Assembly (NCBI GenBank): GCA_014360905.1
Contig: JACIWW010000027.1
Location: 1-36,941, forward strand
Direction of reading: 5' to 3'
DNA from: Chloroflexota bacterium
GTDB lineage: Bacteria; Chloroflexota; Anaerolineae; UBA2200
Length of the DNA: 36,941 bases
Shown here: positions 1 to 11,077 of the stretch, in pieces
Numbering within the stretch: position 1 is the first letter of the stretch
Layout: the number at the start of each line of letters is the position of its first letter
The notes under the pieces: model-generated
Seen by the model: the letters and a program-made list of their open reading frames with translations, nothing else
Databases searched by the model: none
What the model was told of the DNA's origin: nothing
Translations under genes and position numbers: made by a program

Positions 1-192
1 CTGAGTGCGGACAACAATCTGGCCGAACGGAGCCTTCGTCCGCTGGTGGTAGCGCGCAAGATCAGCGGGGGTACGCGGAGTAGCCGCGGTAGCAGGATCA
101 CGTTGGCCCTGGCCAGTCTCTTTGAGACGTGGAAAGCACGTGGGCTCAATCCCCTTACGCAGTGCTTCAGTATGCTTGCTCAAGGCCCTTAA
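1..192 (+). CDS. IS66-family transposase, C-terminal fragment
   Basis: The window opens inside a reading frame that runs to a TAA at 190-192 and gives the last 63 residues of a transposase. It carries the D-N-N-x-A-E-R-x-L-R-P stretch and the following R-K-x-x-G-G-T-R-S motif of the IS66 family; the Glu is the last acidic residue of the DDE catalytic triad and the short tail after it is normal for the family. The rest of the element lies to the left of the window, so whether the copy is intact cannot be judged. It reads toward the WXG100 locus that begins about 130 bases downstream. Family assignment is confident; the subgroup is not determined. Confidence 0.88.
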   Translation: MSADNNLAERSLRPLVVARKISGGTRSSRGSRITLALASLFETWKARGLNPLTQCFSMLAQGP

Positions 193-233
193 CCTCGAAA
201 CTGAAATTTCTTACCTCAAATCTGAACAGTTAC
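1..233 (+). mobile_element. Right end of an IS66-type insertion sequence
   Basis: Transposase coding sequence is followed by a short non-coding tail. GAACAGTTAC ends at 233 and the heptamer CAGTTAC occurs twice (227-233 and 235-241). I take the element to end near 233 because this resembles a terminal inverted repeat, but the left end is outside the window, so neither the repeat nor the target duplication can be confirmed. Confidence 0.4.
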
Positions 234-247
234 ACAGTTACGAAAAT

Positions 248-276
248 TTGACAATTTGGAAATAGGTTAGTATAAT
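248..276 (+). promoter_or_regulatory. Consensus sigma-70 promoter for the type VII locus
   Basis: TTGACA at 248-253 and TATAAT at 271-276 are separated by 17 bases, matching the housekeeping consensus at all twelve positions. It sits about 44 bases before the WXG100 start codon and just after the insertion sequence end, so strong constitutive transcription of the secretion genes is expected. Confidence 0.82.
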
Positions 277-319
277 TTCATACGAGGTTTTAAAAATCCC
301 ATTTTATAGGAGGCGCAAG

Positions 320-595
320 ATGGCTACGCTTCATATGGAAGTAGAGGTTGCCCGTAGCACACAGAACACTATGGCCAATACTTATCAGCAACTCTCTAGC
401 ATGGTGCAAAGCATGACCAGCACAGTCAATGGGCTGCAACCAGCTTGGTTGGGCAACTCTGCTACTGAATTCTTCGGCTTGTACGACCAATGGCGGGGCA
501 GTATGACCAACTTGTTGGATCAACTGCAACAGCTTTCCACTCGGTTGCAAGGTGAAATTACCGAGTGGGAGACCGTGGCCAGCAAACTGGTATAA
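320..595 (+). CDS. WXG100 (ESAT-6-like) protein
   Basis: This 91-residue protein has the size and pattern of the WXG100 family: two predicted amphipathic helices around a central turn that carries W-L-G (in AWLGNSA, about residues 43-45). Family members are small helical dimers exported by, and needed for, type VII secretion. The start ATG at 320 follows an AGGAGG at 308-313. The N-terminus (HM-x-x-E) and the end of the second helix (E-W-E) match the two longer WXG fusions in this locus, so they are paralogues. It lies first in the operon, 85 bases before the ATPase gene. Its place and small size suggest the core structural or co-exported WXG100 protein; this role is inferred. Confidence 0.9.
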   Translation: MATLHMEVEVARSTQNTMANTYQQLSSMVQSMTSTVNGLQPAWLGNSATEFFGLYDQWRGSMTNLLDQLQQLSTRLQGEITEWETVASKLV

Positions 596-631
596 CCCAC
601 TTGCTTGCTATAGAAAAGCAGCCTAGTTCTC

Positions 632-659
632 CTCAGCGGTAGCACAACATAGCGCTGAG
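632..659 (+). other. Stem-loop between the WXG100 gene and the ATPase gene
   Basis: CTCAGCG (632-638) pairs with CGCTGAG (653-659) around a 14-base loop, and the hairpin is followed directly by the AAGGAG ribosome site of the ATPase gene. No T-run follows, so it is not a classical terminator. It could stabilise the upstream mRNA or damp translation of the ATPase, which would keep the small WXG100 protein in excess; this is inference. Confidence 0.5.
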
Positions 660-680
660 AAAGGAGAGTATATTTCGCAT

Positions 681-3600
681 ATGGTTGGAGGCCAAGCCCC
701 CGCCCAACCTCAAGAGGTGGTCCAATATGGGCAAGGCGGGCATTGGTTTTTTATGCCTGCCATGCGGGAACCACTATGTTTGCCGTTAGATAATGTCGAA
801 CTACCCGCACCGGAGATCCCTCCTTCCCCACCTTCTCTCTCGAACCCATTTACTACTATTCTGCCCCCGATTATGCTCGTGATTGGAACCGCAGTGATTT
901 CGTTGCTCTCCAATAATTGGACCATGATGGGCCCTATGCTCATCATGAGCATGGCGTTTCCCCTTGCGAATATATTGAGTTACGCAGTACAAAAACGAAC
1001 CTACCGGCGTGCATGGGCAGAATATGAAGCGTCCTACCGCAAAAAGCTAGCGAAGATGCGCCGTCATCTGGACTCTTTGGCTGAAAACCAGCGTGCGCAA
1101 CTGGAAAAAGAGTACCCCACTGTTTCCAAGATGGTATCCATTGTTCTCGATCGCAATAAGCATTTATGGTGGCGGCGTGCTGATGACGAGGATTTTCTTG
1201 CCCTGCGCATAGGCACCGGCGACAGCAAACCATCTTTCAGTGTTTCACCACCGCGTACGGCTGACTCAAATAATCCTTTGACATCACTTGCATGGGAGCT
1301 TTCTCGATCTTATCAAAAGTTGCCCCATTTGCCTGTTCTATTGCCTCTGCAGCAGGTAGGCAGCCTGGCAATAGCTGGGAAACCTTCCTCAGCGGTTTAT
1401 GGTGTGGCGCGCCGCCTTGTACTGGATGTGCTAGTGCACCACTCACCAGAAGATGTACAGTTGGTCGTTATGACTGATTTACCTGAGGGAAGAGAACGAT
1501 GGGAATGGCTCAAGTGGGCGCCACACACCAGCGCGATTCATGCCGAAGAAGGCGTTTGCCGCCTGGCCTTCACTATGGACCAAGCTCAAGCTTGCCTAGA
1601 ATGGTTGAGGGAGCAATATCGTACCCGTTTTCCAACTACAGATACCACGTCTAATGTAATGAAAGAAGAGAGGCAGCCGGCAGCGATCATAGTGCTGTTA
1701 GACGATTCAGGGCGCATTCGCCAACATCCGGATATTGCGAACTTGGCCGCGCGAGGAAAAGAAGCAGGGATTTACCTGCTTTTTATCGGCGGGCAAGGTT
1801 GGCCACGTGAGTGCCGCGCTCGGCTAGACGTCCTGAGAGAGCACAATTTCCACTACCTTTCATCTCGAGCGGACAAAGAAAGTCTTACAACATGTGAAGG
1901 GATGTACGAGACCGCTTCGCTCGAGGATTGTGAATGTATCGCCCGTAGCTTGGCGCCACTAAAGGTGAGCACTGGACAAAGTGTATGCACCCTGCCGGAT
2001 AGCATTCGCATCTCGCAAGTCTTGGGAACGTTTTCACTAGAAGCATTGAAGCAAAATTGGATGGCAGAGCTTTCGCCAGCGGACATGCTTCAGTTGCCAG
2101 TGGGCGTGCGTGTCGGGCATGAGGGACTGGAGCCAATGATTATTGATCTACGTCCAGAGGGGCTGGGCGGTTATCAAGCATTCCATTCGGTGTTGATTGG
2201 CACTACGGGCAGCGGCAAAAGTGTTTTCTTGCAAACACTGATTCTGTCAGCAGCCTATCGTTATTCGCCGCGCTGGCTGAACTTTATGCTGATGGATTTT
2301 AAAGCAGGCGCCTCGGAATTGAGTAAACTGGAGAAATTGCCTCACGTCGTTGGCTTGGTAACAGATCTTACCCCTGAGCTAGCGACCCGGGCTCTGATCG
2401 CAGTCGATAGCGAAATTCGGCGACGTAAACAGGCCTTTGACGAAGCGGGCAAGTGCACTGGGATACGCATTTCAGATATTTGGGATTACAATAAACGTTT
2501 TCCGGGAGATCCTCTACCACATCTCCTGTTGGTATTGGACGAGTTTGCCAAAGGCATTGAACTCTTACCCGATTTGCAAAGAGTGTTGCAGTCATTGGCT
2601 CAACAAGGTCGAGCATTGGGAGTCTATCTCATTTTAGCCAATCAAAGAGTGACTCATGCCGTAGACACTTTGCTCTCTAACATTGGCTGGCGCATTGTCT
2701 TGCCGGTGGCCGAGCGTGACGAGATGCGCATTGTGGACAGGCTGCGTTCACCCAGTACTCGCCCAGGACGCGGTTATGTACGGGTTAAAGAGGAAGTCTA
2801 CGAGTTCCAAGGAGCACGTTCGGATGAAGCGACTCTCTCCCCTGACGCGGATGGCGTTGGATCTTTTACAATCTACACCATTGAGGCAGATGGCTCTTGG
2901 AAAACGTTGTACAAGTATAGCACCAATATTCCACAAGAAGACCGCAGTGAACAGACCTCTGCGCGCAAGTCCGAGCTGGAAACCTTGATTGATTGGATGA
3001 AGCAGGCTGAGCAAGACCTGGGATTGGTGCCGGCGCGACGAATTTACCTACCACCCTTGGAAGAACACATCCGCTTTGAGGAAATGCTGGAGGATTCTTC
3101 TTTGCCCTTGCGCTTCGAAGATGGCAGATGGCAGGGTGACTCACAAATATCCAGTAAATTGCTCGTTCCGCTAGGATATGTGGATTTGCTCGATGAATCC
3201 CGCCAGGAAATTCTGATGGTAAATTTTGAAGAGCAGGATGGGCATCTCTGGATCGTAGGTAGCCCCGGCAGCGGCAAGGCAATGAGCCTGATTACCTTGC
3301 TGTTGTCATTGGCATATACACATACCCCTGAAGAAGTACAATTTTACATCCTTGAATACGGGGCTGGTACATTGCTCTCTTTAGTAGATCTGCCACACAC
3401 TGGCGCAGTACTTCGTCTGGAGGAGAAAGAGCGCTTGCAACGTTTGCTCGCCTATCTGGATAAGGAGATGGAACAACGTCGAATCCATTTAGGAGGACAA
3501 AAGGTTGACGGAGCTTTCCCCAGTATTTTCTTGGTGGTCAATGACTTTGCTGAATTACGGGCGAACTATCCGGATGAGGCAGAACAGGTGGCCAGTTACG

Positions 3601-4640
3601 TGCGCAGCGGTAAAGCAGTCGGAATCCATGTCATCATCACCAGCAATCGTGGTACGGAGCTAAGCCGTTCCATCTCAGGCAACATTGCTCGCCGCTTGGT
3701 ATTGCAACTGACAAGCCGTAATGAGTACCTGGATGTAGTTAATCAGCCATTGACACCTCTGCCTAAACCTGTTCAGGGACGAGGTTACTGGATAGATCGC
3801 GGAGTGAGGGAATGCCAGGTAGCGCAGCCGCCGTGTGATATGAAGAACCTCGTGCAGCTTATGCGTAAGACCTGGCGCGGTGCTCTCCCTCACGAGATAA
3901 GAGCATTGCCTTCCTGCATTTCTCTGGCCTCGCTTCTTGATGCAGTGAAACCCATCCCTGGGAACGTGATTCCCATTGCTGTCGGACTAGCCTACGAAGA
4001 CTTGCGACTAATTACACCAAACTTGCTGGAGGAAATTCCTCAATGGCTGATTCTTGGGCCGCGGGAAAGTGGCAAGAGCAACTTTCTGGCCTGTATGGCA
4101 CGGAGCGTACTCCATGCTGATGCCAATGGATGGGAGGTATGGATTTTTTCGCCGCGCCGCAGTCTGGCCAACTTAGTAAACATAAATCAAGCCAAGCTTT
4201 TTAGCACTATCGAAGAAAGCGTCAAAGCGCTGGAAGAATTAAATGGACGTCTGAATCAAGGCCAGCCTGCAGCAAGCGGAAAGCGTTTGCTATTATTGCT
4301 GGATGATCTGGGATCTTTCTTCCAGTCAGGTCGTGAAAGAGCTGCCGCTGCACTCAATACCCTAACCACGGCTATTGAAAAAACCAATGAAGTTTACCTC
4401 GTTGCAGCAGGTTTGGTAGAAGAACTTCGGTTGCAAATGGGCAATGCGTTAATCCGCCTTTTACGCCAGAGCCGCACCGGAGTAGTGTTCTCGAAAGACA
4501 GCAATGATTTGGATTGGCTTGGCGCGCAGGTTTCGTGGGAATATCGCAAGATGGATTTACCGTGCGGGCGAGGTTTTTTTGTGAGCAAGGGTAAGGCGCA
4601 ATTGGTGCAAACACCGTTAACAGGGGAGTGCCCGAAATAG
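681..4640 (+). CDS. EccC/EssC-like FtsK/SpoIIIE type VII secretion ATPase
   Basis: This 1319-residue protein is the motor of a type VII secretion system. After a proline-rich N-terminus it has two membrane segments (about 61-77 and 83-100), then the H-L-W-W-R-R and D-F-L-A-L-R-I-G signature (161-178) typical of EccC, and three P-loop modules. Module 1 has G-T-T-G-S-G-K-S at 507-514 and Walker B ending D620-E621. Module 2 has G-S-P-G-S-G-K-A at 860-867 and an N-D-F end near 954-956. Module 3 has G-P-R-E-S-G-K-S at 1126-1133 and an L-D-D-L end near 1207-1210. There is no N-terminal FHA pair as in Firmicute EssC, so the layout is closer to a single-chain actinobacterial EccC. Only module 1 keeps the full catalytic D-E. 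The ATG at 681 has AAGGAG 12 bases upstream. Confidence 0.93.
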   Translation: MVGGQAPAQPQEVVQYGQGGHWFFMPAMREPLCLPLDNVELPAPEIPPSPPSLSNPFTTILPPIMLVIGTAVISLLSNNWTMMGPMLIMSMAFPLANILSYAVQKRTYRRAWAEYEASYRKKLAKMRRHLDSLAENQRAQLEKEYPTVSKMVSIVLDRNKHLWWRRADDEDFLALRIGTGDSKPSFSVSPPRTADSNNPLTSLAWELSRSYQKLPHLPVLLPLQQVGSLAIAGKPSSAVYGVARRLVLDVLVHHSPEDVQLVVMTDLPEGRERWEWLKWAPHTSAIHAEEGVCRLAFTMDQAQACLEWLREQYRTRFPTTDTTSNVMKEERQPAAIIVLLDDSGRIRQHPDIANLAARGKEAGIYLLFIGGQGWPRECRARLDVLREHNFHYLSSRADKESLTTCEGMYETASLEDCECIARSLAPLKVSTGQSVCTLPDSIRISQVLGTFSLEALKQNWMAELSPADMLQLPVGVRVGHEGLEPMIIDLRPEGLGGYQAFHSVLIGTTGSGKSVFLQTLILSAAYRYSPRWLNFMLMDFKAGASELSKLEKLPHVVGLVTDLTPELATRALIAVDSEIRRRKQAFDEAGKCTGIRISDIWDYNKRFPGDPLPHLLLVLDEFAKGIELLPDLQRVLQSLAQQGRALGVYLILANQRVTHAVDTLLSNIGWRIVLPVAERDEMRIVDRLRSPSTRPGRGYVRVKEEVYEFQGARSDEATLSPDADGVGSFTIYTIEADGSWKTLYKYSTNIPQEDRSEQTSARKSELETLIDWMKQAEQDLGLVPARRIYLPPLEEHIRFEEMLEDSSLPLRFEDGRWQGDSQISSKLLVPLGYVDLLDESRQEILMVNFEEQDGHLWIVGSPGSGKAMSLITLLLSLAYTHTPEEVQFYILEYGAGTLLSLVDLPHTGAVLRLEEKERLQRLLAYLDKEMEQRRIHLGGQKVDGAFPSIFLVVNDFAELRANYPDEAEQVASYVRSGKAVGIHVIITSNRGTELSRSISGNIARRLVLQLTSRNEYLDVVNQPLTPLPKPVQGRGYWIDRGVRECQVAQPPCDMKNLVQLMRKTWRGALPHEIRALPSCISLASLLDAVKPIPGNVIPIAVGLAYEDLRLITPNLLEEIPQWLILGPRESGKSNFLACMARSVLHADANGWEVWIFSPRRSLANLVNINQAKLFSTIEESVKALEELNGRLNQGQPAASGKRLLLLLDDLGSFFQSGRERAAAALNTLTTAIEKTNEVYLVAAGLVEELRLQMGNALIRLLRQSRTGVVFSKDSNDLDWLGAQVSWEYRKMDLPCGRGFFVSKGKAQLVQTPLTGECPK

Positions 4641-4665
4641 TTATTGGTGACTCAAGGAGGCAGAT

Positions 4666-5592
4666 ATGGGCGTAATTCACATGGAGACCGAGATCGTCAA
4701 AGAGGGGGCGGAGTGTCTGTTGCATTTTGCCACGGATCTTTCGGCCATTGTGGACAGGCTTAGTTACCACGGCAGGATTCTAAGAGGCGCTTGGCAAGGT
4801 GGCAGGTCGGAGAACTTTGTGGCACAATTTAATGGGTTGATCCGCCAGATGAATGCGCACATTCAAGAACTGGATCAGTTGGGATTGCGCGTCATCAGAG
4901 AGGTAAACGAATGGGAGCAGGTGGACCGTGACAATTCATTCAAAACCTATTGGGAAGATAATTGGCTTCACATCCTGAAAGATGCTACCAAAATCGGCGT
5001 GGCTGCTTCGTTTGCGGCTATGATGAGAACATCGGTCCTGCGACCAAACAGCATTATAATCAGTGCTCCCCCACTACTTAGAGAGATCTTTGGGGGAAGA
5101 AAATTGCGAGCATTTATTGGTTTGGAAGAAACACTGAATATCATTAAGCCCTCTACACTGGCCAAGAAAATGTTCCTAATGAATCTGGCCGTTGAGGTCA
5201 CCCCCCAACTCATTAGCGATTTTAGAGAGTATGGGCTATCTAAACGATTTGTCTCTGCTGCTTTGGTTGATGCTGTACTGAAAAGTGCAAGTAGTTTATT
5301 GCTTTTCGGAGCTAGTAAATTGATAATGGCAGCGTCATTTTCGAATCCAGTCACTGGCGGTCTTATCCTTCTAACGTGGGTAGCTGGTCCGGTATTGTGG
5401 GATTATATCGAACCCGGTTTATCGCGGTGGTTTGAATCACATGTTACAACGAGGGAAGCATTGATTGAACAAGGGGTGCGCGCGATTGACAAAACCCTGA
5501 ATTTTGGTCAGTATGTGGTCCAATCTGCGCGTCAGAAAGCGGATCAGGTTTTCAGCGGCTACATCCGCGCGTTAGCTCCATCTACTATCTGA
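4666..5592 (+). CDS. WXG100-domain protein with hydrophobic C-terminal region (putative type VII substrate)
   Basis: The first ~90 residues of this 308-residue protein form a WXG100 hairpin with A-W-Q-G-G at 42-46 and an E-W-E-x-x-D end at 82-87, matching the other WXG proteins here. The remaining ~215 residues have no motif I recognise. They contain a long hydrophobic stretch (about 196-245) that could span a membrane once or twice, and an amphipathic C-terminal tail. A WXG or LXG domain joined to an extra domain is the usual build of a type VII effector, so it may be a secreted membrane-active protein, but it could also be a structural part of the machine. It starts 25 bases after the ATPase with a strong AAGGAGG site and is followed 10 bases later by an EspG-like gene. 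Confidence 0.75.
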   Translation: MGVIHMETEIVKEGAECLLHFATDLSAIVDRLSYHGRILRGAWQGGRSENFVAQFNGLIRQMNAHIQELDQLGLRVIREVNEWEQVDRDNSFKTYWEDNWLHILKDATKIGVAASFAAMMRTSVLRPNSIIISAPPLLREIFGGRKLRAFIGLEETLNIIKPSTLAKKMFLMNLAVEVTPQLISDFREYGLSKRFVSAALVDAVLKSASSLLLFGASKLIMAASFSNPVTGGLILLTWVAGPVLWDYIEPGLSRWFESHVTTREALIEQGVRAIDKTLNFGQYVVQSARQKADQVFSGYIRALAPSTI

Positions 5593-5602
5593 GAGGGTTG
5601 AG

Positions 5603-6439
5603 ATGACACAACAATGCATTCACTTATCGTTATCTGTTGATGAGCTTGCTTTGTGTTTCTCGCTGGTTAACAGCCCAGCCCAGGGCAGAGCGATCCTGTC
5701 TGAAACATATGGTCAACTAACGGAATCCGAAATCCAGGAGCGGTTGACTTCAGCCAGTCATTCTTTGCTAGCGCGCAAAATGGTAACGATTACCCCTGAG
5801 GCGACCGTTAAGCTGAGCCCAGAGATTGAATGGCTTCTCTATCCTTTGCTTCGTTACTATCGCGTAATTCAAGTAATGATTATGGATAGCGAAGGGCTGC
5901 CGACTATCACGAATATCCATCTAGGAACCAACCACAAATTCACAGCTCATCGAGTAGAGCAAGGCGTAGTCCATCTTCTTTGGCATGACGATGAAGGATC
6001 GCTTTGCCCTCTGATCGAGGAATGGCTATTGCCATGGAAAGAAATGCCAGTGTCCCTGGTTCAGGAGATTCAAAACAAAGAACAAAGGATTACTCTCGCT
6101 CGGTTAGCGGAATTGCAAAGCTTTTCAATGAAAGAAGCCCAGCGAGCACTTGTCTCCGATGGCATCAGCGCCCTTATTGCTTCTGAGCTGGCCATGGATG
6201 GTACACGTTCTCTGAAAAGGGGCAGCATTGTTTTTGTTGATGCTTCTCCAGAAAACATAGCGAATCTCGATCCTGCCCAGGCCGGTCCTGGTATTCTATT
6301 CATAACTGGTGAAAAGACGACTTGGATTTTTGCCTTTGAAGAGGTTAATGATGCGGCCATAGGGCAAATTGCGATCGGGAGCTTGGATGCTTTTCGAAAA
6401 GTATTCCAGGATTTTCTCCAGAGGCACGATGCACAATAA
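5603..6439 (+). CDS. Putative EspG-like type VII chaperone (paralogue 1)
   Basis: This soluble 278-residue protein has no signal peptide or membrane segment. It is similar in layout to the 251-residue protein encoded at 7447-8202: an N-terminal strand, a hydrophobic helix, an L-T-x-x-E helix start, a segment ending near T-I-T-P or R-P-T, and a mid-protein H-L-L-W ... D-D-E-G-S-L block matching H-L-L-L-F ... E-D-E-S-L in the other. Size and position recall EspG, the cytosolic chaperone that binds particular ESX substrates. It begins 10 bases after the WXG fusion gene, as expected for a dedicated partner. The EspG link rests on context and loose pattern only; an immunity protein for the upstream gene is the main alternative. 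Confidence 0.55.
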   Translation: MTQQCIHLSLSVDELALCFSLVNSPAQGRAILSETYGQLTESEIQERLTSASHSLLARKMVTITPEATVKLSPEIEWLLYPLLRYYRVIQVMIMDSEGLPTITNIHLGTNHKFTAHRVEQGVVHLLWHDDEGSLCPLIEEWLLPWKEMPVSLVQEIQNKEQRITLARLAELQSFSMKEAQRALVSDGISALIASELAMDGTRSLKRGSIVFVDASPENIANLDPAQAGPGILFITGEKTTWIFAFEEVNDAAIGQIAIGSLDAFRKVFQDFLQRHDAQ

Positions 6440-6445
6440 CGGCGT

Positions 6446-6735
6446 CTGTTGGTGCTTTCCATTCATGTTGAACCACATGAGCTGCGCCTGACTGCTCAGG
6501 CTGTGGAGCACAAGGCTCTGCAGATAGACTACAAGTGGAGAGTTCGCGTATTGCCTGAGCTTATTTAGAGATGGCCTGGCAGGGAAGAACGGCAGAGCTA
6601 TTTCTCATGGGAATGCAAGCGCTTTTATGGCGATTAGGCGCTAGGATCGAAGAATTAGATGCTCTAGCCTTGACTCTTTTGTGACAAGCTGATCGCTGGG
6701 AAGAGCGCGATCAATGCTGGAATAATCTTGCAAAC
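6446..6735 (+). pseudogene. Decayed WXG100-domain gene
   Basis: Two reading frames together spell a WXG100 domain. Frame one (6446-6568) reads S-I-H-V-E-P-H-E-L, the equivalent of the HM-x-x-E start of the intact paralogues, and stops at TAG 6566. Frame two begins beside it (6565 onward) with L-E-M-A-W-Q-G, the central WXG turn, continues as the second helix, meets TGA at 6682-6684, and resumes with A-D-R-W-E-E-R-D, the conserved helix end. A frameshift near 6560 and one internal stop are therefore needed. There is no clear start codon or ribosome site. A hydrophobic run follows (to about 6785), like the membrane segment after the WXG domain of the protease fusion, before the FHA gene begins. 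Confidence 0.75.
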
Positions 6736-6823
6736 ATTATGGCATTTATGCTAGCGCTTTCAATTCTTATGAACCTTTTATGTATTGAGAGGGATACGAG
6801 AAGAATCATCGAGTGCGACAAGT

Positions 6824-7420
6824 ATGGCTTATGTGAAAGTTACCGTTACTTATGCGCCAGATGGGCGCAAGGACCTTGCTTTACCATTGGAGGTACCAGT
6901 TGGTTTGCTAGCCAATGCACTTGCCGAGGCCTTACATCTGGCTCCACCTCACGAGCATTATGTGCTTAGCATACAAGGTAAAAAGGGCCCACAACGCTTA
7001 CCGGAAAACCTGGCATTGGGTGAAATTGCCGTTTTTCATGGGGCTGTCTTATCCCTGGTACGAGGCTCGGAAATACGTCCTATACCGGGTCCTTCACCTA
7101 AAACGCTGCTAGTTGTTAAGAGTGGCCAGACATACTCACTCAGAAAGATTACTACTATCATTGGTCGCCGTGATCCCAAGCGCGGTATTGAGGTAGATAT
7201 AGATCTCAGCCTATTGGATAAAAGGCCGCCAATAATCTCGCGCCGTCACGCTTCCATCACCTGTAAAGGGGAAATCTGTCTTCTGACCGATTTAGGGAGC
7301 ACGAACGGTACATGGCTGAACGAGGAATACCTGATACCCAACCAGCCGTATCTTTTGAAAGATGGGGATGAGATTGCCCTTGGTCGCAGCGGGGTGCGGT
7401 TGAAATTTCTCTGTCGTTAA
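6824..7420 (+). CDS. Ubiquitin-like (EsaB/YukD-type) plus FHA domain fusion
   Basis: From the ATG at 6824 the protein has 198 residues. Residues 1-80 look like a ubiquitin-like fold of the YukD/EsaB group (opening strand, G-x-x-x-L-x-L helix starting 'VGLLANAL', later 'LGEIAVFHGAVLSL'), which in type VII systems is a small regulatory protein or the head of EccD. Residues 92-198 are a complete FHA domain with G-R at 114-115, S-R-R-H at 129-132 and L-G-S-T-N-G-T at 147-153, so phosphothreonine binding should be intact. No Ser/Thr kinase lies in the window. An upstream TTG at 6785 would add 13 residues; neither start has a strong ribosome site, and I chose ATG because the Ub-like strand starts there. 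The 3' end meets the opposite-strand gene after 26 bases. Confidence 0.8.
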   Translation: MAYVKVTVTYAPDGRKDLALPLEVPVGLLANALAEALHLAPPHEHYVLSIQGKKGPQRLPENLALGEIAVFHGAVLSLVRGSEIRPIPGPSPKTLLVVKSGQTYSLRKITTIIGRRDPKRGIEVDIDLSLLDKRPPIISRRHASITCKGEICLLTDLGSTNGTWLNEEYLIPNQPYLLKDGDEIALGRSGVRLKFLCR

Positions 7421-7446
7421 TAGCGCCTTTCTTCGACAAAATCCAG

Positions 7447-8202
7447 TTACTGCCAGTGCACAACTGGAGCAAAGAGAAATTCCTTTGTCCCTGTCTTTCC
7501 TAATGTAGTGCTCCATAAATGGGCACCATTAGAGGCCAAGAAACGCATACCAACTAAGCGAAGCTCTCCCTTTTGGGCCCTAAAAAAGGTCAGTTGAGTC
7601 AAGCTTTTCCAATCTCGTAGGCAATCCAGTGCAACTGAGATCTCGCTGGGAGGCAGTCCGCAAACTTGCAAAGCACGATGAGCTGCCTGGGAATCACGCC
7701 AGAACAAGCTTAGAATAGGAATTGGCTCCGGTAGGCGCAGAGTTGGCCCAGGGTTTGGTTCGATGGTGATAGGAACCCCGAAAAGATTCCGACAATGCGT
7801 CCACAGACTTTCATCTTCTTGAAATAGGAGCAGGTGATAGCAATCATTCACGAATTCGAGCAAAAGGCTTTTCTCAGCGCGAGAATACAGCCCGGCTGTG
7901 CGTGCCTCAGCCTGAGAACGTAGGACTTGAATTAAGACAAGCCTTTCCGGAGCGCTTAGCCATTCCACAAGCGATGCGATAAAACGATCTATCTCCACGC
8001 CAATGCTCGCTGTTGGACGAATTAGGCCGTGCTGTATCAGTTCCATTCTGCCCTGATCCAGGCACACATTCAGCTCAGCGGGTGTAAGGGAACAAAAGGG
8101 ATTTCCAGGCAAAACTACGTCCACTTTGCCCAGAGCTTGCATTAACCAAAACAATGCACCCTTGCTTATTTCCAAACTGAACTCTTCAGTTTTCTCCATC
8201 AT
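7447..8202 (-). CDS. Putative EspG-like type VII chaperone (paralogue 2)
   Basis: A 251-residue soluble protein with no signal peptide. It shares with the 5603-6439 product an N-terminal L-E-I/S-V strand, hydrophobic helix, L-T-P-A-E helix start, G-L-I-R-P segment and a central H-L-L-L-F ... E-D-E-S-L block. The gene follows the WXG-protease gene by only 6 bases, repeating the substrate-then-partner order of the + strand arm. I infer that it escorts the protease fusion to the ATPase. An inhibitor that keeps the protease inactive inside the cell would explain the same arrangement. No enzymatic motif is visible. Confidence 0.55.
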   Translation of the reverse strand: MMEKTEEFSLEISKGALFWLMQALGKVDVVLPGNPFCSLTPAELNVCLDQGRMELIQHGLIRPTASIGVEIDRFIASLVEWLSAPERLVLIQVLRSQAEARTAGLYSRAEKSLLLEFVNDCYHLLLFQEDESLWTHCRNLFGVPITIEPNPGPTLRLPEPIPILSLFWRDSQAAHRALQVCGLPPSEISVALDCLRDWKSLTQLTFFRAQKGELRLVGMRFLASNGAHLWSTTLGKTGTKEFLFAPVVHWQ

Positions 8203-8208
8203 GCCCCC

Positions 8209-9342
8209 TTATGGCCGAATAACATACATAGAGTTCATCCCTTTTTCCCACATCTCCTCAAAGGTATCTGGATCTATCTGTACCTCCTTGCCACTCCAGG
8301 GGTCATTTACCACTAGTTGTCCTTCCTGGGCCATACCCTTAACAACCATAGAATGCATAGTATTTCCTGCCCCTTTAAGAGCTCGTTCTTTTCCCCCCAC
8401 TAGATTGACGCCAGCTGCAATGATAACTGGACCATCTTGGAGCGCTGTTCTCAATTCCTTCAGTGAGGCATTTACCTTGCTAATAGGGATTTGGTAGCCT
8501 AGCTGTTGCAGCTCATCGGTCACTTTAGAAAGGGAAATTCCTTTGCCAGGTATTCCATCACCAGGATCGAGCATCTTAATAAGTTCGTCCGGTGAAACAG
8601 TCTTATGAGAGGGATCTATAGCATGGAAATAATCTAGCACCATACTAACCGAAGCAGGCGCACAGGCAGCATTACCGTAGAGGCTACCTTGTGAGTGGAC
8701 AGGAACCTCGTGATAGATTTCGTATTTGGATGTAGATGATGCAGGTTGTGCTGAAACAGAGGCCGAGGGCTCGTTGCTTGTGGGTTGGTCAGGTTTTTCT
8801 GTGATGAGCTCGCGAAATGAACTCTTAGGAAGGCTTGGAGGAGTCTCTTCAGCGATAGGCGTGTGGATTTCCTGGGATGGAAAAAGCTTCTCCAACCATG
8901 TCCGCAGCCATGGAGGGAGAAGTCGGCTCCAGGGAAGTTCAGCCAAGATAAGTGGCGGGGAAAAGCCGCTAGAAAGGAAGGCAGTGGAAAGGAATAGCCC
9001 GCTTACTCCACCAGTGATCAGAGGTGTCTGCTTAAACGGCATAGCGGTTCTGCTTGCTGTCCAATAGCGTGCGCCACGTTGATCAGTCTCTTCCCACTCG
9101 GCGACTTCGTGCTCGAGGTGGATGGACAGTTCAAATAAGGTGGTGATTTGCTCACTCAACTTGGTTGCCAGGTGTTCAGCTTCTGCCTGGAATTTGGCGT
9201 GTCCTCCGCCTTGCCAAGCACATGACAATGCATCCAGAGCACGGTGCAAGGAGAACAACTCTCCTTCAGCCATTTTAGCTGTGTGGCGCATTTTGGCAGC
9301 AAGGTTGCGGATTTCCTCTGTTTGCATGTGAAGGATAGCCAT
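8209..9342 (-). CDS. WXG100 domain fused to C39-like cysteine protease (putative type VII effector)
   Basis: Residues 1-90 of this 377-residue protein are a WXG100 hairpin with A-W-Q-G at 42-45 and E-W-E-E-T-D at 82-87. A hydrophobic segment (about 107-135) and a Ser/Pro/Thr-rich linker (about 160-205) lead to a papain-like C39-type peptidase domain (about 206-377). The catalytic set is visible: oxyanion Gln218, Cys227 in N-A-A-C-A-P-A-S, His330 in T-M-H-S-M-V-V, and Asp347 (or Asn346) in V-N-D-P-W. This build suggests a protease exported through the nearby ATPase, perhaps tethered by the hydrophobic segment; a role in processing other substrates is also possible. The ATG at 9342 follows GGAGGAG. 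The partner gene begins 6 bases downstream. Confidence 0.85.
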   Translation of the reverse strand: MAILHMQTEEIRNLAAKMRHTAKMAEGELFSLHRALDALSCAWQGGGHAKFQAEAEHLATKLSEQITTLFELSIHLEHEVAEWEETDQRGARYWTASRTAMPFKQTPLITGGVSGLFLSTAFLSSGFSPPLILAELPWSRLLPPWLRTWLEKLFPSQEIHTPIAEETPPSLPKSSFRELITEKPDQPTSNEPSASVSAQPASSTSKYEIYHEVPVHSQGSLYGNAACAPASVSMVLDYFHAIDPSHKTVSPDELIKMLDPGDGIPGKGISLSKVTDELQQLGYQIPISKVNASLKELRTALQDGPVIIAAGVNLVGGKERALKGAGNTMHSMVVKGMAQEGQLVVNDPWSGKEVQIDPDTFEEMWEKGMNSMYVIRP

Positions 9343-9398: not shown

Positions 9399-9929
9399 CT
9401 AAACCAATTCCTTCAGTGCTCGCGCGTACGCCTCATAAGCCGAGCTACCGAACAGGACGAAGCGTACTAACTCGATTTCAGGATGGGACTGCAGGTATTC
9501 CATCACCGTCCGCAGCGCAATTGGTGCCGCCAGTTCGATGGGGTAGCCATAGGCGCCGGTGCTGATGGATGGGAATGCCACGCTCTTGATGCCGTGCTTG
9601 GAAGCCAGTTCCAGGCTGTAACGGTAAGCACTAGCCAGGGTCTCTGCCTCCCCTTGCGTTCCACCGCGGTAGATGGGGCCCACGGCATGGATGACGTACT
9701 TGGCCTTCAGTTTGCCTCCGCTGGTGATGCGCGCTTCACCAGGCGGGCAACCGCCGATTTCGCGGCATTCTTCGAGGATCTGTGGTCCCCCAGCACGGTG
9801 TATGGCTCCATCCACGCCGCCCCCGCCTAAAAGGCTTGGGTTTGCCGCATTGACAATTGCTTCGGTATCCTGCTGCGTAATGTCGCCCTGCACCAACTCC
9901 AGTTTGGATTTTCCAACCGTTACCTCCAT
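9399..9929 (-). CDS. Macro-domain protein (ADP-ribose binding, YmdB-like)
   Basis: This 176-residue protein is a single macro domain of normal length. Visible are Q-G-D-I-T (14-18, Asp16 for the adenine), V-N-A-A-N-P (26-31), the [10 protein letters not shown] loop (35-44) and the phosphate loop [10 protein letters not shown] (121-130). Family members bind ADP-ribose and many remove O-acetyl groups or mono-ADP-ribose. It lies 14 bases after the asparaginase gene, with GGAGG upstream of its ATG, so the two are probably co-transcribed; the WXG-protease gene follows after 56 bases. A link to the secretion locus is possible but only by position. Confidence 0.92.
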
Positions 9930-9943
9930 CTTTCAAACCTCCA

Positions 9944-10870
9944 TTAGCCGCGATAAACAACCGCTTCTCGCACTTCCGGCGCGCGGGAATCCTCCCACAT
10001 GACCAGGTAGTGCTCCCCGGCGGACTTGGTCGTAATGCCAAAGGGGTGGCTATTGCGATCCATGGCGACGATGCTCATGGTGCCGCCACTGGATGCCAGG
10101 ATGGGCTGCAAGTCACGCATTGCCTCATGACAGGCTTCCTCAACGCTCATGCCTATCTTCATGTACAATACGATGCTGCGGGCTGTGCCAGCGCGAATAG
10201 CGGACTCTCCGTGGTGGGTGCATGCTGCTGCCCCGTAGCGGTTGTCGGCGTAGTTGCCCGCTCCGATGATCGGCGAATCGCCCAAACGGCCTGGGTATTT
10301 CCAGGGCCAGCCACTGGTGCTAACGCCGCAAGCGATGTTCCCCTGCTGGTCGCGGGCGATGAAATTGACCGTACCTTGGCGGAGCCGGCTGTTGATGAGA
10401 TCCTTGACCAAGGGAAGCAGTTCCTTCCGGTCTGGCAGGGCATCGATCTCAGTATCGGGAATCAGTTCACGCAAGCGCTCCTGCCACTTGTTCCGCGCTC
10501 GCTCTATGGGCAGATTGCAACGAGAAAAGCCCAGCTCAGCGGCAAAGCGGTTTGCGCCTTCCCCCACCAGGATGACATGTGGCGTCAGTTCCATGACACG
10601 GCGGGCAATGGAGATAGGATGAGCATACCCTTGCATGGCCCCCACAGCACCTGCTGCCAGTGTGCGCCCGTCCATGATGCTGGCATCCAGTTCTACTTGT
10701 CCCAGTACGTTGGGCAGACCACCCACACCAACTCCTTCATCCTGCTCATTGAGTTCCACCAGCCGGATGCCTGCTTCAACAGCATCGAGCGCTGTGCCTC
10801 CTTCGCGTAGCACTTGCATTGCCTTCTCGATACCCGGCTGGCCATTGTGCGATGTAACGACCAACATCAT
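9944..10870 (-). CDS. Asparaginase/isoaspartyl peptidase family Ntn-hydrolase
   Basis: This 308-residue protein belongs to the N4-(beta-N-acetylglucosaminyl)-L-asparaginase family, which self-cleaves before a threonine that then acts as nucleophile. The G-T-V-N-F stretch in mid-protein supplies the Thr, and P-G-R-x-G-D-S-P-I-I-G-A-G with Y-A-D-N downstream forms the substrate pocket typical of the family. Normal N-terminal features (T-S-H-N-G, A-L-D-A-V-E-A-G-I, D-E-G-V-G-V-G-G-L-P-N) are present. The start at 10870 is chosen over 10906 because AGGAG lies 7 bases before it. It likely hydrolyses glycosyl-asparagine, asparagine or beta-aspartyl peptides; the exact substrate cannot be read from sequence. 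Confidence 0.92.
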   Translation of the reverse strand: MMLVVTSHNGQPGIEKAMQVLREGGTALDAVEAGIRLVELNEQDEGVGVGGLPNVLGQVELDASIMDGRTLAAGAVGAMQGYAHPISIARRVMELTPHVILVGEGANRFAAELGFSRCNLPIERARNKWQERLRELIPDTEIDALPDRKELLPLVKDLINSRLRQGTVNFIARDQQGNIACGVSTSGWPWKYPGRLGDSPIIGAGNYADNRYGAAACTHHGESAIRAGTARSIVLYMKIGMSVEEACHEAMRDLQPILASSGGTMSIVAMDRNSHPFGITTKSAGEHYLVMWEDSRAPEVREAVVYRG

Positions 10871-11077
10871 TGTTGTTCTCCTTGTTTGTGTTGATGAGGA
10901 ACGCATTTATTTTAGATGCAGAAGTGCAGAAGGGCAAATGGGAGCATTCCCATAACTGTTCAGTTAACGCGGACGCGCAGCGTTCGCGCCGATAAACGAA
11001 TACACGGCGCAGCTCACTCGTGGCTCATTCCTTGTTGGCGATTGGATACGTGGTAAGTCCTGTTTGCTACGAACTAA

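What the first reader, a model, noticed from the sequence alone, without database searches (positions are those of the whole stretch)
248..9342. Compact, two-armed type VII (ESX/WXG100) secretion locus with few core parts
One EccC-like three-ATPase motor is surrounded by three intact WXG-domain proteins, a decayed one, a Ub-FHA fusion and two EspG-like proteins, yet EccB, EccD, EccE, mycosin, EsaA and EssB are all absent. Known actinobacterial and Firmicute systems need such membrane parts. Either they are encoded elsewhere or this lineage uses a reduced machine, possibly with the Ub-FHA protein replacing the soluble part of EccD.
Basis: partly seen in the sequence, partly recalled or inferred. 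Interest (0 to 1): 0.85.

Follow-up and report, generated by a model that had tools for sequence, protein, structure and literature searches.

The report
Phospho-switch type VII secretion locus, Chloroflexota
A bacterium, probably a Chloroflexota, carries a stripped-down protein-export machine of the type VII kind, with two likely cargo proteins and their likely chaperones and, probably just across a mobile element, a kinase and a phosphatase that may switch it on and off; it extends a group of such machines that was catalogued in 2024.

Summary
The parts are real. An EccC/EssC ATPase, a 91-aa WXG100 protein, two WXG-fused proteins (one with a C39-like cysteine peptidase), a decayed WXG copy, a ubiquitin-like-FHA fusion and two EspG-like proteins lie at 320-9342. 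Each WXG-fused gene is followed, 10 or 6 bases on, by an EspG-like gene. Genome searches found no EccB, EccD, EssB or EsaA. That is not unprecedented: T7SSc, g and h (2024) lack them too.

The window starts at a contig edge inside an IS66 element, so the locus is cut. The other end of an IS66 sits at the start of contig C4. There, running toward the break, lie genes for a vWA-FHA protein, a PP2C phosphatase, a transmembrane Ser/Thr kinase and a PA14/NHL protein. A shared 8-mer beside the IS ends, synteny in relatives and the kinase's distribution suggest one locus. Together they hold all seven T7SSc component types.

Best reading: a T7SSc-like, phosphorylation-gated system, probably of Anaerolineae, with EccC as pore candidate and Ub-FHA as phospho-reader. 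The junction is inferred, the chaperone assignment rests on sequence, and structure models were poor. New variant of a known kind.

The parts
1..233 (+). Right end of an IS66 element (last 63 codons of the transposase plus terminal inverted repeat); contig edge
   Evidence: PF03050 7.2e-6; same sequence at the starts of contigs C8, C18, C19, C20, C25, C33
242..249 (+). GAAAATTT, candidate IS66 target-site duplication shared with the C4 contig end; 234-241 is a tandem copy of the last 8 bp of the IS
248..276 (+). Perfect sigma-70 promoter match (TTGACA-17-TATAAT) ahead of the WXG100 gene
   Evidence: 12 of 12; consensus match only, and the scan as a whole found 13 sites against 10.3 in shuffles
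320..595 (+). WXG100 (EsxA/TsxA-like), 91 aa
   Evidence: PF06013 4.6e-12; TIGR03930 48.8 bits over cut-off 44.85
681..4640 (+). EccC/EssC-type ATPase, 1319 aa, two hydrophobic segments at residues 58-76 and 81-99 (the second only at the lower threshold), no N-terminal FHA, three FtsK-type domains
4666..5592 (+). WXG-fused protein, 308 aa, hydrophobic C-terminal part of unknown function (candidate substrate)
   Evidence: PF06013 2.2e-5, over cut-off; AF2 pLDDT 39.8, uninformative
5603..6439 (+). EspG-like (TsxG) chaperone candidate 1, 278 aa, 10 bases after the 308-aa gene
   Evidence: family
6461..6684 (+). Decayed WXG copy (two frames, internal stop, no start)
   Evidence: weak
6785..7420 (+). 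Ubiquitin-like (YukD) + FHA fusion, 211 aa from TTG 6785 or 198 aa from ATG 6824
   Evidence: PF08817 6.9e-10, PF00498 7.6e-17; GR, SRxH and N positions invariant in the 10 aligned rows
7447..8202 (-). EspG-like chaperone candidate 2, 251 aa, 6 bases after the WXG-C39 gene
   Evidence: leave-out HMM 1e-13; profile match 2.1e-4
8209..9342 (-). WXG-fused C39-like cysteine peptidase, 377 aa (candidate substrate)
   Evidence: PF13529 1.6e-9, PF06013 2.5e-7; Q218, C227 and H330 shared with a second WXG-C39 protein, L044, which its contig end cuts

Best explanation
This is a T7SSc-like type VII secretion locus of a Chloroflexota, probably Anaerolineae, split between two contigs by an IS66 insertion. 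Shown by sequence: the core (WXG100, EccC without FHA, Ub-FHA), two adjacent WXG-fused/EspG-like gene pairs (WXG-308 with EspG1; WXG-C39 peptidase with EspG2), and, at the start of contig C4, a transmembrane Ser/Thr kinase, a PP2C phosphatase, a vWA-TM-FHA protein and a PA14/NHL protein. Inferred: C4 and C27 are neighbours across the IS66. Inferred mechanism: each EspG-like chaperone keeps its WXG-fused substrate soluble and hands it to EccC; an EccC hexamer, whose TM helices line the pore in ESX-5, pushes it through the membrane; the Ub half of Ub-FHA docks on EccC as the EccD Ubl domain does, and the FHA half reads a phosphothreonine made by the kinase, so that secretion is gated by kinase and phosphatase. 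The C39 peptidase and the hydrophobic 308-aa protein are the exported effectors.
For: EccC membership. Pairing: both EspG-like genes in the window lie 10 or 6 bases behind a WXG-fused gene; 20 of 34 EspG-like genes in the loci I examined have a same-strand WXG gene within 300 bp, and 8 of the 14 without lie under 700 b from a contig or locus end (the WXG HMM was built partly from these neighbours). Ub-FHA full length in 9 of the 15 genomes that I judged EccC-positive, plus one cut by its contig end. FHA phospho-binding positions invariant in 10 of 10 aligned rows (their role is recalled). FHA, with a probable Ub-like stretch before it, inside an Actinomycetota EccC. C4-C27 link: IS66 left end at C4 and right end at C27 in matching orientation; the 8 bp beside C4's IS recur exactly at C27 242-249, right behind a duplicated IS end, as a nested IS66 insertion would leave; a random 8-mer from contig ends matches that place in 1e-5 of draws and any of the 7 flanks at offsets 0-13 in 0.0011, about 0.9% over the eight left ends. 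Control pairs in register: C10-C19 8/8, C6-C8 7/8, C34-C20 7/8. The C4 PA14 protein matches (38% over 362 aa) the gene that directly precedes EccC in L046, and genes near EccC in L044 and L045. The C4 kinase is 34-35% identical to the kinases of 4 relatives of the order, which match the C5 kinase at 60-85%; a full-length EccC too is in 1 of 7 genomes of the order. Kinase, PP2C and vWA-FHA genes lie beside EccC in relatives L048 and L050. Pore: the ESX-5 pore is built from EccC TM helices with a conserved TMH2 proline (PMC8232910, passages); the window EccC has P85 in its second segment, in line with prolines of 7 of 9 relatives.
Against: No sequence spans C4-IS66-C27. The shared 8-mer is 8 bp out of register; C4 also matches C20, which has another partner, at 7 of 8 at the same offset, and C38 matches C27 at 7 of 8 one base out of register, though C38 starts with unrelated-looking genes. 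4 of the 7 right ends tested, C27 among them, have no in-register partner, and two further right-end matches at C28 and C34 were left out of the comparison. How common PA14 proteins are in these genomes was not tested. EccC falls under all three NCBIfam cut-offs and sits on a long branch that the tree cannot place. The EspG-like protein gave a poor model (pLDDT 46.3) and no fold match; 4 of 35 family members match PF14011 at E 1. EspG-like genes were found in 7 of the 15 EccC-positive genomes, and of 16 EspG-positive genomes among the first 150, 9 had no long EccC match, so the link is loose. Of the other Chloroflexota records, the genomes of L105 and L070 have sub-cut-off EsaA matches (1.5e-10, 2.6e-7). 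That P85 equals the ESX-5 proline is not shown. No T7SSc reference sequence was compared. I saw no obvious immunity gene beside either candidate effector, so a toxin role is open. No secretion or phosphorylation was measured.
Confidence: 0.65

Rival explanations
1. A truly minimal machine: the window is complete, EccC with WXG100, Ub-FHA and EspG-like chaperones is all there is, much as in T7SSg or T7SSh, and the C4 genes are an unrelated signalling cluster.
For: In T7SSg the ATPase is the one membrane part named, and T7SSh adds only TshM with one TM helix (PMC11217815). The WXG100 gene has its own perfect promoter match at 248-276. Kinase/PP2C/vWA clusters also occur in other contexts (recalled). 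No sequence spans the proposed junction, and the 8-mer is out of register.
Against: The C4 cluster shows the matching IS66 end, the shared 8-mer, PA14 synteny and a kinase without a close counterpart in the relatives compared; kinase, PP2C and vWA-FHA genes lie beside EccC in L048 and L050.
Confidence: 0.24
2. A decaying locus: the IS66 insertion and the broken WXG copy show that the system was acquired and is being lost, and the remaining genes are no longer used.
For: IS66 at the edge and a decayed WXG copy, no full-length EccC in the 6 other genomes of the order, GC3 0.44-0.51 against 0.52-0.65 for the 11 other window genes measured.
Against: The core frames are open and key positions are kept: D1 Walker A/B, FHA GR/SRxH/N, C39 Q/C/H; the IS ends ahead of, not in, the promoter match.
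Confidence: 0.08
3. Undetected, very divergent EccB/EccD/EssB/EsaA counterparts complete a canonical T7SSa or T7SSb elsewhere in the genome.
For: Profiles can miss diverged membrane proteins; completeness is 96.23%; EccE, mycosin and EssA were not searched; other Chloroflexota genomes show sub-cut-off EsaA matches.
Against: No match in G000 at E 0.1 for EccB, EccD, EssB or EsaA, with controls that ring; the only YukD match is the Ub-FHA protein.
Confidence: 0.05

Closest known systems
T7SSc (TscA-TscG; Garrett, Higginson and Palmer 2024, PMC11217815)
   Same: WXG100, Ub-like protein, EccC without FHA, EspG-like protein, and (on C4) transmembrane kinase, PP2C phosphatase and vWA protein; no EccB, EccD, EssB or EsaA found
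   Different: Ub is fused to FHA; the vWA protein has TM segments and an FHA domain where TscE is called cytoplasmic; the PP2C has a TM segment; two EspG-like genes paired with WXG-fused genes; the paper covers Bacillota and Actinomycetota; kinase set on another contig
T7SSh and T7SSg (same paper)
   Same: EccC without FHA; T7SSh has an EspG-like protein, and homologues of the window's EspG-like family sit behind EccC in Paenibacillus loci L071 and L073, whose layout resembles T7SSh
   Different: No TshM or TsgL counterpart among the seven proteins scanned; Tad pilus genes, the usual neighbours, were not searched for here
T7SSb (EsaA, EssA, EssB, EssC, EsaB, EsxA)
   Same: EssC-type ATPase, Ub-like EsaB, FHA domain present in the system, EsaE described as EspG-like (PMC11217815, passage)
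   Different: FHA is not on the ATPase; no EssB or EsaA match
T7SSa / ESX
   Same: EccC, EspG family (PF14011 matches a relative), Ub fold as in EccD
   Different: No EccB or EccD match; EccE and mycosin not searched

Membership tests
EccC/EssC ATPase | Full-length similarity with TM segments, DUF and three FtsK-type domains | tested here: met
   TIGR03928 8.8e-174 over residues 35-1311; PDB EccC/YukB hits. Under the equivalog cut-offs.
Type VII secretion system (any) | EccC/EssC ATPase encoded with a WXG100 protein | tested here: met
T7SSa | EccB and EccD present | tested here: not met
   no match in G000; added actinobacterial genomes ring over cut-off: 2 of 2 for EccD, 3 of 3 for EccB
T7SSb | EssB and EsaA present | tested here: not met
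   no match in G000; 1 of 14 control genomes over cut-off in each search, B. subtilis among those that ring; genomes of L088 and L106 over cut-off for EsaA
T7SSc | TscA, TscB, TscC without FHA, TscG at one locus | tested here: met
   320-595, 6785-7420 (Ub fused to FHA), 681-4640, and two EspG-like genes
T7SSc | TscD kinase, TscE vWA, TscF PPM phosphatase at the same locus | tested here: inconclusive
   all three kinds at the start of C4; linkage to C27 inferred from IS66 ends
T7SSc | EccC groups with T7SSc ATPases in a tree | not tested
EspG chaperone family | PF14011 match or linked sequence family | tested here: met
   relative L155 30 bits over cut-off 27; window proteins linked by HMM; no Pfam match of the window proteins themselves
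EspG chaperone family | EspG fold | tested here: inconclusive
   pLDDT 46.3, no fold match
C39-like peptidase | PF13529 with catalytic Cys and His | tested here: met
   38.9 bits over 24; C227 and H330 shared with L044; catalytic roles recalled

The most novel reading that the evidence does not exclude
A type VII machine in which a free Ub-FHA adaptor is a phospho-operated clutch: it docks on EccC by its ubiquitin-like half and locks or unlocks the ATPase by binding a phosphothreonine set by the locus's own kinase and erased by its PP2C, while EccC alone forms the membrane channel. In some Actinomycetota the same module is built into EccC itself.
Probability: 0.3. Interest if true: 0.75.

Novelty: new variant of a known kind. 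Interest (0 to 1): 0.55.

Why it matters
It carries a T7SSc-type plan outside Bacillota and Actinomycetota, adds to the case that export can work without EccB/EccD/EssB/EsaA counterparts, and gives a small system in which the question 'can EccC alone form the pore?' could be tested. The Ub-FHA protein, separate here and apparently part of EccC in some Actinomycetota, points to a direct physical link between phosphorylation and the ATPase. The gene pairs give a simple marker for finding candidate effectors.

Tried and rejected
Structure route: AF2 of EspG1 with 8 rows gave pLDDT 46.3 and Foldseek found nothing at E 0.001 or better; AF2 of the 308-aa protein alone gave pLDDT 39.8. Neither is used as evidence. 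PDB sequence searches with EspG-like profiles found no EspG. A PDB search of the C39 domain gave only weak, unconvincing hits. PHROGs gave nothing for three proteins. The EccC tree (quick search, LG+G4, 46 rows that I chose from those collected) leaves the window protein on a long branch next to another long branch and is not used to place it; four rows of about 2900-3000 aa and one of 2075 aa had been dropped. Genomes G010, G046, G078, G122 and G141 with weaker EccC-like hits were not counted as EccC-positive; I looked at two of their loci (L051, L052) and found no WXG gene there. A 10-TM protein beside Ub-FHA in L046 looked like an EccD membrane half but is an ammonium transporter. C38 as the left partner of C27 was considered because of a 7/8 match one base off, and set behind C4 because its first genes look housekeeping-like (named by eye). 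Profile comparisons by hhalign had no negative control and count as hints. Literature searches showed no paper on a Chloroflexota T7SS gene set of this kind; most subscription papers are not in the library, and Sutcliffe 2011 was seen only as a reference.
Full report
Check of the observation. The ATPase at 681-4640 matches EssC and EccC models over nearly its whole length (TIGR03928 8.8e-174) and solved EccC and YukB chains, although it is under all three curated cut-offs. It has two hydrophobic segments at residues 58-76 and 81-99, the second only at a lower threshold, no FHA domain, an intact first ATPase site, and D2/D3 sites without the Glu of the Walker B motif, the usual EccC pattern (pattern recalled; motifs). 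The three WXG100 matches of the whole genome that pass the cut-off are all in this window, as is the only YukD match of the genome.

What the unnamed proteins are. The 377-aa WXG protein carries a C39-like cysteine peptidase domain with glutamine, cysteine and histidine shared with a second such protein in L044. The 278-aa and 251-aa proteins form one family. An HMM built from 32 class members, without the 251-aa protein and without Bacillota rows, finds the 251-aa protein at 1e-13 and the proteins behind EccC in two Paenibacillus loci at 1.6e-11 and 6.2e-8; the layout of these loci resembles the published T7SSh, where that place is TshG, but I did not test their other genes. Of 35 family members, 4 match PF14011 EspG at E 1 or better, and one, L155, passes its cut-off. 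The family has a match in 35 of 298 genomes drawn from the class, some of them weak. In the window each EspG-like gene follows a WXG-fused gene on the same strand with 10 or 6 bases between. Over 34 EspG-like genes of the loci I examined, 20 have a same-strand WXG gene within 300 bp; one search lists further places that I did not examine. Of 10 WXG proteins from such loci, 2 have a named C-terminal domain over cut-off: C39 in L044 and lipase in L162; L047, beside EccC but not beside an EspG-like gene, has a WXG-CHAP protein. I read the pairs as substrate and chaperone.

Missing membrane parts. Whole-genome profile searches of G000 (96.23% complete, 49 contigs) gave no match at E 0.1 for YukC/EssB, EccD, EccB or EsaA. 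Controls: for EssB and EsaA, 1 of 14 control genomes is over the cut-off and B. subtilis is among those that ring; the genomes of L088 and L106 are over it for EsaA; EccD and EccB ring over cut-off in the 2 and 3 actinobacterial genomes that I added, whereas nothing rang for EccB. No class genome passed a cut-off: 0 of 17 for EccB and EssB and 0 of 15 for EccD and EsaA. Sub-cut-off matches occur: G064 3.8e-5 for EccD, G055 0.0026 for EsaA, and, outside the class sample, the genomes of L105 (1.5e-10) and L070 (2.6e-7) for EsaA. EccE, mycosin and EssA were not searched. The absence is therefore supported for four families, but it is not new: T7SSc, g and h lack them as well (PMC11217815).

The locus is cut. 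The window is a whole contig and its first 233 bases are the right end of an IS66 that also begins six other contigs. I took the ends of the other contigs. Contig C4 begins with an IS66 left end. Reading inward from it, on the strand that runs out toward the break, come a PA14/NHL/PPC protein, a Ser/Thr kinase, a PP2C phosphatase and a vWA-FHA protein, each of the last three with a hydrophobic segment. Turned round, this cluster would lie upstream of WXG100-EccC and in the same direction. Four things speak for that junction. First, the 8 bp beside the IS on C4, GAAAATTT, are found on C27 at 242-249, directly behind an exact copy of the last 8 bp of the IS, which is what a second IS66 hitting the end of the first would leave; three other pairs of contig ends match in register with 8, 7 and 7 of 8. 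A random 8-mer from this genome's contig ends matches that place in 1e-5 of draws and any of the seven flanks at offsets 0-13 in 0.0011, about 0.9% over eight left ends. Second, the C4 PA14 protein matches (38% over 362 aa) the gene that ends about 100 bp before EccC in L046, and genes near EccC in L044 and L045. Third, the C4 kinase is only 34-35% identical to the kinases of four relatives, while the C5 kinase matches these at 60-85%; the fifth locus compared gave no hit with either, and the sixth genome has no kinase match. A full-length EccC has the same distribution, 1 of 7 genomes of the order (the other six give FtsK-type matches only). Fourth, kinase, PP2C and vWA-FHA genes stand beside EccC in L048 and L050. 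Against it: no sequence spans the junction, the repeat is out of register, C4 matches C20 at 7 of 8 at the same offset, C38 matches C27 at 7 of 8 one base off, and four of seven right ends have no in-register partner.

Ub-FHA. The fusion is not a peculiarity of this genome: it is full length in 9 of the 15 genomes of the class that I judged EccC-positive, cut by the contig end in one and not found in five. The phosphothreonine-binding positions (GR, SRxH, N; roles recalled) are invariant in 10 of 10 aligned rows, the window's included. In an Actinomycetota EccC (L122, Propionibacterium MAG) an FHA domain (PF00498 1.3e-13) and before it a stretch that aligns with the Ub half (hhalign probability 86.6 for the pair, without a negative control; no Pfam YukD match) are part of EccC itself. 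In ESX-5 the EccD Ubl domain contacts the EccC DUF (PMC8232910, passages). This makes docking on EccC the most likely job of the Ub half.

How it probably works. Shown: the parts, their order, the conserved sites and the adjacency. Inferred: the chaperones deliver the two WXG-fused proteins; EccC forms the channel with its own TM helices, as the ESX-5 pore suggests; the kinase, the phosphatase and the FHA reader gate it. A single-membrane envelope would make further envelope parts less necessary (recalled for Anaerolineae, not tested).

Membership and novelty. It is a type VII system by the EccC plus WXG100 criterion. It is not T7SSa or T7SSb by the families tested. With C4 it has all seven T7SSc component types, but linkage and tree placement are open, so 'T7SSc-like' is as far as I go. 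Papers seen place WXG100 proteins and T7SS-type toxins in Chloroflexi (PMC3935865, PMC10765036, PMC3482391; passages only), but none of my searches showed this gene set described. Host class: the EccC tree joins G146 of the class with a record titled Anaerolineales, so Anaerolineae is an inference.

Noticed in passing
IS66 right ends in contigs C27 (window 234-260), C33, C25, C19, C18, C8: In 6 of 7 IS66 right-end flanks compared, a TTGAC motif starts 14-18 bp beyond the element, as if this IS66 targets the stretch just upstream of -35 boxes; C20 lacks it, and two further right-end matches (C28, C34) were not examined for it.
   Followed up: partly
L053 1922-10699, L054 2064-11114, L055 4455-13349, L056 7727-16759: EccC-like proteins of about 2900-3000 aa in four genomes of the class, with many FtsK-type matches in one frame: apparently doubled EccCs, with WXG matches nearby and a neighbour of about 365 aa with a C-terminal hydrophobic segment, confirmed as Pkinase in L055.
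   Followed up: no
L122 9359-13762, L072 9077-13738, L077 9293-13702, L133 2132-6745: Actinomycetota EccCs with an extra N-terminal part; in L122 it is FHA with an apparently Ub-like stretch, in L072 and L077 only weak FHA-type matches, in L133 none by Pfam. L122 also has PP2C and kinase genes upstream.
   Followed up: partly
L043, L047, L049: A clade whose EccC sits with a WXG-CHAP-type protein (confirmed by Pfam in L047) and a hydrophobic-segment protein of no Pfam family (scanned in L047), with no Ub-FHA found.
   Followed up: partly
Genomes G003, G004, G022, G030, G041, G079, G092, G094, G144: EspG-like matches (some weak) without a long EccC match in the same genome: orphan modules, missed EccC, or incomplete assemblies.
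   Followed up: no
window 9399-10906 (-): A macro-domain protein and an asparaginase-type hydrolase directly beside the WXG-C39 gene; GC3 is higher there, 0.64-0.65, so probably the old chromosome.
   Followed up: no
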